Origin: an uncultured SAR86 cluster bacterium
GTDB taxonomy: Bacteria > Pseudomonadota > Gammaproteobacteria > Magnimaribacterales > D2472
NCBI GenBank assembly: GCA_902557575.1
Contig: CACEAR010000006.1
Location: 1-56,159, forward strand
Direction of reading: 5' to 3'
DNA: 56,159 bases
Shown: positions 11,077-32,243 of the stretch, piece by piece
Position numbering within the stretch: position 1 is the first letter of the stretch
Layout: each line of letters opens with the position of its first letter
Translations under genes and position numbers: made by a program
The notes under the pieces: generated by a model
The model's database searches: none
The model's input: the letters and a program-made list of their open reading frames with translations, nothing else
Told to the model about the DNA's origin: nothing

Positions 11077-11161
11077 GGGGATGTGATGGAACTGGTAGAC
11101 ATGCTTGGCTTAGAACCAAGTGCCGCAAGGCGTGGGGGTTCGACTCCCTCCATCCCTACCA
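11077..11161 (+). tRNA. tRNA-Leu (anticodon UAG)
   Basis: This is an 85-base class II tRNA with a long variable arm (GTGCCGCAAGGCG). The acceptor stem GGGGATG pairs with CATCCCT with one G-U at the end; the anticodon stem CTTGG/CCAAG encloses CTTAGAA, giving anticodon TAG. The D arm reads GGTAGAC and the T loop TTCGACT. Discriminator A and an encoded CCA (11159-11161) complete it. Confidence 0.97.
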
Positions 11162-11212
11162 TTAAACTCCTTTAAATTTATGCTTACAAATTGAGGCATC
11201 ATCATCTATTAA

Positions 11213-12628
11213 ATGTTATATACTTTTTCCATGGATTGGAAAAATAAAATATACACAGGAGATTGTCTGTATGTTCTTCATGGGCTGGATACAAATTCAG
11301 CAGACCTGATTTATTTAGATCCACCATTTAACTCTAATAGAATTTTTTCCGCTCCAATTGGAAGCAAGGCTGCAGGTTCTTCCTTCGATGATATGTGGAC
11401 TTGGAACGAAGTTGATAAAACATTTTTAGAAGAAATGATTGTCGATTATCCATTTTTAGTTAATTTTATTCAAAGCATTGATATTATTCATTCAAAGTCT
11501 ATGAAGGCCTACATAACATATATGGCACAAAGACTTATTGAGATGAGACGAGTCTTAAAAGAAGATGGTTCAATTTATTTGCACTGTGACCCAACAGCCG
11601 TTCATTACTTGAAAGTTGTTTGTGATAGGATTTTTAGCAAGAAAAATTTTGCATCTCAAATAATCTGGAAGCGTAATTCATCACACAATGATTCTAAGTC
11701 TTTCGGAAATGTTTCTGATACTATTCTTTTTTATGGCCACAATATCAATACTGAAGATATACGAGTACCATTAAAAGATGACTATGTAAGGAAATTTTAT
11801 AGATACTCAGATTCAAAAGGTCTTTATCAAGCAGATAATTTAAGTGCGAAAGGTTTATCAGGAGGGGGTTATGAGTATGATTTTCATGGTCATATGGGGC
11901 CGTGGAGATTTCCAGAAAAAAGAATGAGAGAGTTGGAAGAAAATGATTTAATACATTATCCAAAAAAAATAGGAGGCGTCCCCAGAAAAAAACGATATCT
12001 TCATGAAAATAAAGGCCAACTACCTACAAATATTTGGGATGACATACCAGCTATATCAGCTCATTCAAAAGAAAAAACTGGATACCCAACTCAGAAACCA
12101 CTTGAGCTGTTAAAAAGGATTATAAAAGCTAGCTCAAAAGAAGGTGACTTAGTGATTGACCCATTTTGTGGTTGTGCAACTGCATGTGTTGCAGCGCAGC
12201 AACTGAATAGAAAATGGATAGGAATTGACGTAGAGCCAAACTCTGCTCAGATTGTAAGCAGTCGGATAATGGATGATGCAGGGCTTTTTACAAATTTTGT
12301 TCATATTGATTGTATAAAAGATCCTAAAAATTATCCTACAAGATCTAATGCAGAAAAGGTCTCAAAGAAAAGCGCAAAAGAAAGATTATATGAAGAGCAA
12401 AAAGGCAAATGCAATGGCTGTGAAACCAAGTTTGAAATTAGACATTTCCATGTTGATCATCGCATCCCAAAATCGAAGGGGGGTCCTGATACATATGAAA
12501 ATTATCAGTTATTATGTGGAAGTTGCAACCAAATCAAGGGGGATAGACCGATGGCTTATCTTAGAATGAGAATAGATCAAATAAATGAACAAATGAAATT
12601 TAGAGTTAGTTTTGGAGAGAGTGATTAA
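11213..12628 (+). CDS. DNA methyltransferase fused to a C-terminal HNH endonuclease domain
   Basis: The N-terminal 350 or so residues form an amino (N6-adenine or N4-cytosine) DNA methyltransferase of beta-class order: the catalytic DPPF at 36-39 comes before YPTQKP at 291-296 and the SAM-binding DPFCGCATA at 316-324. After a short linker, residues 395-445 form a zinc-HNH nuclease: CxxC at 400/403, HVDH at 413-416, Asn430, and CxxC at 435/438. One chain thus carries modification and probable cleavage activities, as in single-chain type II systems. No specificity subunit or partner gene is next to it. It sits just after tRNA-Leu, a common insertion point, but no repeat of the tRNA end was found. 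The ATG at 11231 is an alternative start. Target sequence cannot be read from the protein. Confidence 0.92.
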   Translation: MLYTFSMDWKNKIYTGDCLYVLHGLDTNSADLIYLDPPFNSNRIFSAPIGSKAAGSSFDDMWTWNEVDKTFLEEMIVDYPFLVNFIQSIDIIHSKSMKAYITYMAQRLIEMRRVLKEDGSIYLHCDPTAVHYLKVVCDRIFSKKNFASQIIWKRNSSHNDSKSFGNVSDTILFYGHNINTEDIRVPLKDDYVRKFYRYSDSKGLYQADNLSAKGLSGGGYEYDFHGHMGPWRFPEKRMRELEENDLIHYPKKIGGVPRKKRYLHENKGQLPTNIWDDIPAISAHSKEKTGYPTQKPLELLKRIIKASSKEGDLVIDPFCGCATACVAAQQLNRKWIGIDVEPNSAQIVSSRIMDDAGLFTNFVHIDCIKDPKNYPTRSNAEKVSKKSAKERLYEEQKGKCNGCETKFEIRHFHVDHRIPKSKGGPDTYENYQLLCGSCNQIKGDRPMAYLRMRIDQINEQMKFRVSFGESD

Positions 12629-12678
12629 GCTTCTTTTAACAGCCTTAATTTTTAACAATTTATAATATAATAAATATC

Positions 12679-31657: not shown

Positions 31658-31685
31658 TTTATAAAAAGTATTGAATTGGTTTCAA
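31658..31685 (-). promoter_or_regulatory. Promoter of the TIGR02206-dehydratase-MscS-permease operon
   Basis: On the minus strand TTGAAA (31685-31680), a 16-bp spacer and TATAAA (31663-31658) lie about 15 bases before the ATG at 31642. It overlaps the divergent HNH promoter. Confidence 0.5.
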
Positions 31686-31699
31686 GGGACAATTATAGT
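31671..31699 (+). promoter_or_regulatory. Promoter of the HNH endonuclease gene
   Basis: TTGAAT (31671-31676), a 17-bp spacer and TATAGT (31694-31699) lie 31 bases before the TTG start at 31731. This shows that a start at 31671 cannot be right. Confidence 0.6.
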
Positions 31700-31730
31700 A
31701 TTTTTAAACTTAATTTACATAGGAAAAAAT

Positions 31731-32243
31731 TTGTCACGAGATTGTCTTCTTCTTAATGGGAATGGAAAGCCTGTTAGCTTTTTTCCACTTTCAGTTATTA
31801 ATTGGAAAACTGCCGTTAAACTCTTACTTGCAAGGAATGTTATTTTAATTAAGGCTCATGATGATCAGTATGTAAGATCTCCATCGATTTCTATTGAGCT
31901 CCCAAGTATTCTTATGTTAAAGAGATTTCACAAATTCCATAATTATGTAAAGTTTTCAAGATCAAATGTTTTCTTGAGGGATATGTATACATGCCAATAC
32001 TGCCAAAATATCTTCTCTAGGAACGAGTTGACTCTTGATCATGTTATCCCTAAATCTAAAAATGGACTTACTAACTGGGAAAATGTTGTTACTTCCTGCA
32101 AATCATGCAACTCTGCAAAGGGGTCAAGCTTACAAAAACCAATAAGAGAACCATTTAAGCCAAGTTTTTCACATCTACTGAATGGACATAAAATAGATGA
32201 GAACACTTTTCCAGACAGTGAATGGGCTAAGTATATATTTTAG
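31731..32243 (+). CDS. Small HNH endonuclease
   Basis: This 170-residue nuclease of the McrA/HNH type has an N-terminal domain (DCLLLNGNGKPVSFFPLSVINW) usual for a widespread bacterial HNH family. The nuclease core has CxxC at 88/91, TLDHVIPKS with the metal-binding Asp-His at 103-104, and CxxC at 123/126. The TTG start at 31731 is chosen because AGGA stands 6 bases before it, a promoter lies upstream, and the family begins at this point. It is a lone gene, so it is probably a housekeeping nuclease rather than part of a restriction system. Its cellular role is not known. Confidence 0.88.
   Translation: MSRDCLLLNGNGKPVSFFPLSVINWKTAVKLLLARNVILIKAHDDQYVRSPSISIELPSILMLKRFHKFHNYVKFSRSNVFLRDMYTCQYCQNIFSRNELTLDHVIPKSKNGLTNWENVVTSCKSCNSAKGSSLQKPIREPFKPSFSHLLNGHKIDENTFPDSEWAKYIF

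What the first reader, a model, noticed from the sequence alone, without database searches (positions are those of the whole stretch)
11213..12628. Single-chain DNA methyltransferase fused to an HNH nuclease, next to tRNA-Leu
A beta-class amino methyltransferase (DPPF, then YPTQKP and FCG loop) is joined to a complete HNH domain with both CxxC pairs and HVDH. Either it is a one-gene restriction-modification enzyme, or the HNH part cuts one methylation state or nicks during repair. No specificity subunit or partner is near, and the gene lies 52 bp after a tRNA, a frequent integration point. Nearby genes show normal composition, so it may be old and fixed rather than recently gained.
Basis: partly seen in the sequence, partly recalled or inferred. 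Interest (0 to 1): 0.65.

Follow-up and report, generated by a model that had tools for sequence, protein, structure and literature searches.

The report
One-gene DNA methylase-nuclease on mobile DNA
A marine-type bacterium carries, in a variable DNA-insertion spot next to a tRNA gene, a single protein that joins a DNA-marking enzyme to a DNA-cutting one, most likely a compact one-gene defence (restriction-modification) system from a mobile family whose cutting half has been swapped between three unrelated types.

Summary
Window 11213-12628 encodes an intact 471-aa protein: beta-class amino-methyltransferase (PF01555, motif IV DPPF, then a variable recognition region, then YPTQKP and DPFCG) followed by a complete HNH domain. 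All HNH metal and catalytic residues are kept in 14 of 14 fused proteins. It begins 51 bp after tRNA-Leu(UAG). 'Old and fixed' is wrong: all nine congeners lack it, three show a clean empty site, and five carry unrelated cargo at the same tRNA, two with extra copies of the tRNA 3' end. The strongest argument for a one-chain restriction-modification enzyme is comparative. The same methyltransferase core is joined at the same point to HNH, to Mrr-like PD-(D/E)XK (about 95 of the relatives collected, mostly viral), or once to GIY-YIG. The recognition region is exchanged between otherwise 87-95% identical proteins. HNH-fused copies ride in IS1595-family transposons, in one genome three times with 8-bp duplications. 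It differs from Type IIG (gamma-class). It is the genome's only detected amino-methyltransferase gene of the three families searched, so methylation calling would be decisive. Activity is untested; novelty against REBASE could not be checked.

The parts
11077..11161 (+). tRNA-Leu (UAG), the integration target; its 3' end is the left boundary of the variable segment
   Evidence: ARAGORN; alignments to nine congeners
11162..12652 (+). variable insert, 1,491 bp, absent from three congeners in which tRNA-Leu runs straight into window 12653; no terminal inverted repeats and no copy of the tRNA 3' end at its right edge
11213..12628 (+). methyltransferase-HNH fusion gene, 471 aa (alternative start ATG 11231)
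11318..11329 (+). methyltransferase motif IV DPPF (residues 36-39); lies before motif I, i.e. beta-class order
   Evidence: invariant in the 12-row alignment
11669..12064 (+). hypervariable putative target recognition region (about residues 153-284)
   Evidence: 23-41% identity here (fewer counting gaps) against 52-95% in flanking parts; low-confidence in the model
12083..12100 (+). motif X region YPTQKP (residues 291-296)
12158..12172 (+). AdoMet-binding motif I DPFCG (residues 316-320)
12410..12547 (+). HNH nuclease domain (residues 400-445): C400/C403 and C435/C438 pairs, D415-H416, N430, N439
   Evidence: kept in 14 of 14 fused proteins

Best explanation
A single-chain restriction-modification enzyme. 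The N-terminal beta-class methyltransferase marks one sequence, chosen by the internal variable region, most likely as N6-methyladenine (inferred from DPPF). The C-terminal HNH domain, steered by the same recognition region, cuts unmarked DNA such as phage or plasmid DNA at or near that sequence. Because both activities share one recognition module, swapping it changes both specificities at once. The gene moves as a small cargo, here in a tRNA-Leu insertion spot. Shown here: domain integrity, recognition-region exchange, nuclease-type replacement at one fusion point, patchy presence, mobility of relatives. Inferred: m6A product, cutting of unmarked DNA, coupling of the two.
For: Both domains complete; catalytic HNH residues kept in 14 of 14 fused proteins from genomes of the same class, Rickettsiales and viral contigs. 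The same methyltransferase core carries Mrr-like PD-(D/E)XK or GIY-YIG domains instead of HNH in relatives, and the tree separates an HNH(+GIY) group from an Mrr group (SH-aLRT 94 and 93), so the nuclease half was replaced at least twice while a nuclease was kept. Recognition region swapped among close relatives: L032/L034 95% (N part), 92% (HNH), 23% (recognition region); two copies in G298 87/77/32%; L033 and L034 lie at the same chromosomal site but differ there. Alone in the genome: no other PF01555, no N6_Mtase, no D12 methylase, and no partner gene beside it. Accessory and mobile.
Against: No activity of any member was measured. In Mrr-type relatives the QxK position is often S (54 of 95) and the same stretch also hits a family named for inactive nucleases, so some relatives may not cut. 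Recognition-region exchange is also seen in methyltransferases that act without a cognate nuclease (general knowledge).
Confidence: 0.7

Rival explanations
1. A solitary (regulatory or protective) methyltransferase whose HNH part does not restrict but nicks or processes DNA, for example hemimethylated, damaged or branched DNA.
For: HNH domain also matches endonuclease VII-like and general HNH families; HNH members of other families nick or resolve junctions (general knowledge).
Against: Replacement of HNH by Mrr-like and GIY-YIG nucleases on the same core fits a requirement for cutting near a chosen site better than a lesion- or junction-specific role; rapid recognition-region turnover and patchy presence do not fit a housekeeping role.
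Confidence: 0.15
2. A selfish mobility module: the nuclease helps the element spread (cutting the unoccupied site, or killing cells that lose it), with methylation as self-protection.
For: Exact junction with the tRNA 3' end; HNH-fused genes as passengers of IS1595-family transposons in two contexts.
Against: Fused relatives sit at unrelated sites; none of the other HNH copies checked is at tRNA-Leu; the transposons have their own transposase. Post-segregational killing would itself be a restriction-modification activity, so this overlaps the main reading.
Confidence: 0.1
3. Decaying or inactive leftover of a prophage or mobile element.
For: Neighbouring cargo slots are short and without integrase; a related copy in G115 has stops inside.
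Against: Window gene is full length with every motif kept. G115 has many broken genes around and is 59% complete, so its stops may be assembly errors.
Confidence: 0.05

Closest known systems
Type IIG / Type IIC restriction enzymes (MmeI, BcgI, AloI)
   Same: Methylation and cleavage in one chain sharing one specificity module; changing the module changes both activities (PMC4081073, PMC12707154)
   Different: Those use a gamma-class methyltransferase with the specificity module at the C-terminus or on a separate subunit (PMC4081073; usual N-terminal PD-(D/E)XK nuclease from general knowledge). Here the methyltransferase is beta-class, the recognition region is internal and the HNH nuclease is C-terminal.
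Phage 'DNA methylases' of Streptomyces phage OzzyJ (SEA_OZZYJ_49) and Mycobacterium phage Mask (SEA_MASK_42)
   Same: 38-40% identical methyltransferase core over about residues 10-354
   Different: C-terminal domain is Mrr_cat, not HNH; annotated as methylase only
Stand-alone beta-class methyltransferases (CcrM, M.RsrI, M.MboIIA, M.BceJIV)
   Same: Same fold and motif order; best solved-structure matches
   Different: No fused nuclease
Two-gene Type II systems with HNH endonucleases (KpnI, Hpy99I, PacI; Paracoccus HNH plus methylase M9)
   Same: HNH nuclease paired with a protecting methyltransferase (PMC4081073, PMC11473606)
   Different: Two separate proteins
ParB-methylase Bce_0392 of Bacillus cereus
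   Same: Adenine methylase fused to a nuclease domain, reported as a nicking endonuclease (cited in PMC5512222)
   Different: ParB-like nuclease, not HNH; not compared by sequence here

Membership tests
Beta-class amino-methyltransferase | motif IV before motifs X and I, with recognition region between | tested here: met
   DPPF 36-39, variable 153-284, YPTQKP 291-296, DPFCG 316-320; structure matches M.BceJIV, RsrI, MboIIA
HNH nuclease | two CxxC zinc pairs plus D-H ... N ... N catalytic and metal residues | tested here: met
   PF01844 over its curated cut-off; residues kept in 14 of 14
Type IIG restriction enzyme | gamma-class methyltransferase domain in the same chain as the cleavage domain | tested here: not met
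   Motif order is beta-class; no N6_Mtase (PF02384) hit in the genome
Type IIC in the broad sense (cleavage and modification in one polypeptide) | both domains in one polypeptide | tested here: met
Type IIC in the broad sense (cleavage and modification in one polypeptide) | both activities demonstrated, with methylation blocking cleavage | not testable with these tools
   needs protein or native-DNA methylation data
Type III restriction-modification (Mod subunit) | Res helicase-nuclease gene beside mod | tested here: not met
   The genes either side are an alpha/beta hydrolase and DUF4345-like and PQQ-like proteins; a genome-wide search for Res was not made
IS1595-family transposon passenger | ISXO2-like transposase and terminal inverted repeats around the gene | tested here: not met
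   Met for L088/L094/L098 and L103; not for the window copy

The most novel reading that the evidence does not exclude
A widespread mobile family of single-chain restriction-modification enzymes built on one beta-class methyltransferase with an interchangeable C-terminal nuclease (HNH, Mrr-like PD-(D/E)XK or GIY-YIG) and an interchangeable internal recognition region, spread by phages, IS1595-type transposons and tRNA-site islands, with its nuclease half overlooked in phage records that name it only 'DNA methylase'.
Probability: 0.5. Interest if true: 0.62.

Novelty: new variant of a known kind. Interest (0 to 1): 0.48.

Why it matters
If active, it is a compact (about 470 aa) enzyme in which one recognition module would set both methylation and cleavage, on a different methyltransferase class from Type IIG. 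Natural replacement of the nuclease by three folds at one fusion point gives a direct way to ask what a restriction enzyme needs from its cutting domain. It would also mean that many phage 'methylases' are candidate phage-borne restriction enzymes, possibly used against competing phages.

Tried and rejected
Single-protein query in viral contigs found nothing; profile queries were needed. GIY-YIG type searched in viral contigs: no relative, so that fusion rests on one genome. Enterococcus plasmid hit that aligned over residues 10-457 is a methyltransferase beside helicase genes with no HNH match, hence Type III-like, not a member. Terminal inverted repeats around the window gene: none. Target-motif avoidance was not attempted because the motif is unknown and the gene is probably a recent arrival. 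Literature searches for a methyltransferase-HNH fusion returned no description, but REBASE and subscription papers were not searchable. IS1595 elements with a methyltransferase passenger: no description found in the titles and abstracts returned; whether ISfinder lists one could not be checked.

Full report
What is there. The window holds one intact open reading frame at 11213-12628, 471 aa. Pfam finds a DNA methylase domain (PF01555, residues 31-347, E=1.4e-45) and an HNH nuclease (PF01844, residues 400-445, E=1.1e-13). The order DPPF (36-39), variable stretch, YPTQKP (291-296), DPFCG (316-320) is that of beta-class amino-methyltransferases. The best solved matches are CcrM, M.BceJIV, M.RsrI and M.MboIIA by sequence and by predicted fold (model mean pLDDT 68.6, confident in the methyltransferase and HNH, poor at 185-271). 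None of the 50 best fold matches listed is a methyltransferase joined to an HNH domain. The DPPF form suggests an adenine methyltransferase, which is inference from family knowledge.

Host. The 16S gene of the genome is closest among plasmid-collection records to gammaproteobacteria (84% to Legionella, Methylomagnum, Halomonas). The genome is about 1.16 Mb, 93% complete, and the region is about 35% GC. I read this as a small-genome, deeply branching gammaproteobacterium; its name is not known to me, and 'marine-type' is an inference from genome size and composition.

Insertion spot. The tRNA-Leu gene ends at 11161. In congeners G001, G003 and G008 the tRNA is followed directly by what is window 12653 onward, at 84-94% identity on both sides, so the segment 11162-12652 is a clean insertion or deletion. 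G002, G004, G006, G007 and G009 carry other, unrelated cargo at this exact place: signalling genes (G002, G007), a sigma-factor-like gene with two associated genes (G006, G009), small proteins (G002, G004) (gene labels here are my reading of the translations). G005 is rearranged. In G002 and G004 the last 23-24 bases of the tRNA are repeated between cargo pieces, and G004 has a further decayed copy at the outer edge. In G002 the repeat stands just before the cargo that in G007 follows the tRNA directly. This is the pattern left by serial integration at a tRNA 3' end. No integrase was seen in any of the slots. The window's own insert lacks such a repeat at its right edge and lacks inverted repeats. 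All nine congeners lack the gene; because eight of nine have the flanking site on one contig, this is not an effect of incomplete assemblies. So the gene is accessory in this genus, contrary to 'old and fixed'. Its normal base composition fits a donor of similar composition; fused relatives at 55% identity are in other genera of the same family (G016, G033).

Relatives with HNH. Full-length fused relatives: G016, G033 and a broken copy in G115 (same family), three Rickettsiales MAGs (38-40%), genomes G298 (two copies), G247 and G385, and viral contigs L103, L107, L113. They are rare: 4 of 203 genomes of the order counting the window's own and the broken one, about 4 of 369 in a sample of the class, and only the window's own among 398 genomes sampled across the phylum. 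In 14 of 14 fused proteins both CxxC pairs, D-H, N and CxxCN are kept.

Recognition region. Between residues 153 and 284 identity collapses while both sides stay high: L032 against L034 95% / 23% / 92% (N part / variable region / HNH), L033 against L034 92 / 39 / 76, the two G298 copies 87 / 32 / 77. L033 and L034 lie between the same neighbours, so the region was exchanged in place. This is what specificity changes look like in restriction-modification enzymes.

Nuclease replacement. A profile of the family finds hundreds of viral relatives (254 and 571 confirmed in two scans). Of those collected, about 95 carry a C-terminal Mrr-like PD-(D/E)XK domain instead of HNH, as do genes of named phages OzzyJ and Mask and a Bradyrhizobium plasmid, all annotated only as methylase or methyltransferase. 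The conserved D and K are at 99% in the aligned set; the Q of the QxK motif is often S, so activity of that branch is not assured. My Mrr label was assigned by this motif, so the 95 of 95 is partly circular; the Pfam hits are independent of it. One genome (G205, L089) carries a GIY-YIG (T5orf172) domain in the same position. A tree of the methyltransferase core, made without the recognition region and nuclease, splits HNH plus GIY (SH-aLRT 94) from Mrr (93), with GIY inside the HNH group in the best tree (87, open fork); two changes of nuclease suffice. The nuclease fold has been replaced but a nuclease retained. This is the main reason I favour restriction over an incidental fusion.

Mobility of relatives. 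In G385 the fused gene lies in a 2.54-kb unit present three times at 99.8-99.96% identity, bounded by GGGAATTATATACCCGATTACAC inverted repeats and 8-bp A+T-rich direct repeats read from the printed ends (TTATTTTA, AAATTAAA, AAAATTTA), with an IS1595-family (ISXO2-like) transposase. Viral contig L103 carries the fused gene beside a transposase of the same family between inverted repeats that share 20 identical bases. HNH-type fusions are therefore transposon passengers in at least two places.

Alone in its genome. Searches of the genome found no other N6_N4_Mtase, no N6_Mtase, no D12 methylase, and one C5-cytosine methylase. Any adenine or N4-cytosine motif found in native DNA would most likely belong to this gene, with the caveat that the genome is 93% complete.

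What it is called. Type IIG enzymes join methylation and cleavage in one chain but with a gamma-class methyltransferase (PMC4081073), which is not the case here. It works like a Type IIG/IIC enzyme and should not be filed as Type IIG. I found no published description of this architecture in the held papers, but REBASE was not available, so novelty is provisional.

Noticed in passing
L069 (G002:C2), L071 (G004:C1): Tandem copies of the last 23-24 bases of tRNA-Leu between cargo pieces, with a decayed third copy in G004: serial integration at one tRNA with no integrase in the slots.
   Followed up: partly
L088, L094, L098 (G385:C1) and L103 (IMG/VR): IS1595-family transposons carrying the methyltransferase-HNH gene as passenger; three near-identical copies in one genome with 8-bp target duplications.
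   Followed up: partly
L104 and about 95 similar loci; OzzyJ SEA_OZZYJ_49, Mask SEA_MASK_42: Phage genes annotated as DNA methylase carry a C-terminal Mrr-like nuclease domain that the annotation omits.
   Followed up: partly
G233:C133 9523-13794 (L083, L091, L096): Three methyltransferase-Mrr genes in tandem in one genome.
   Followed up: no
window 31671-32243: Stand-alone HNH protein (190 aa); a similar HNH stretch is matched in every congener, unlike the fused one.
   Followed up: no
L074 and L069: A signalling gene cluster (EAL, GGDEF, response regulator, histidine kinase by my reading) is shared cargo at the tRNA-Leu spot of two congeners.
   Followed up: no
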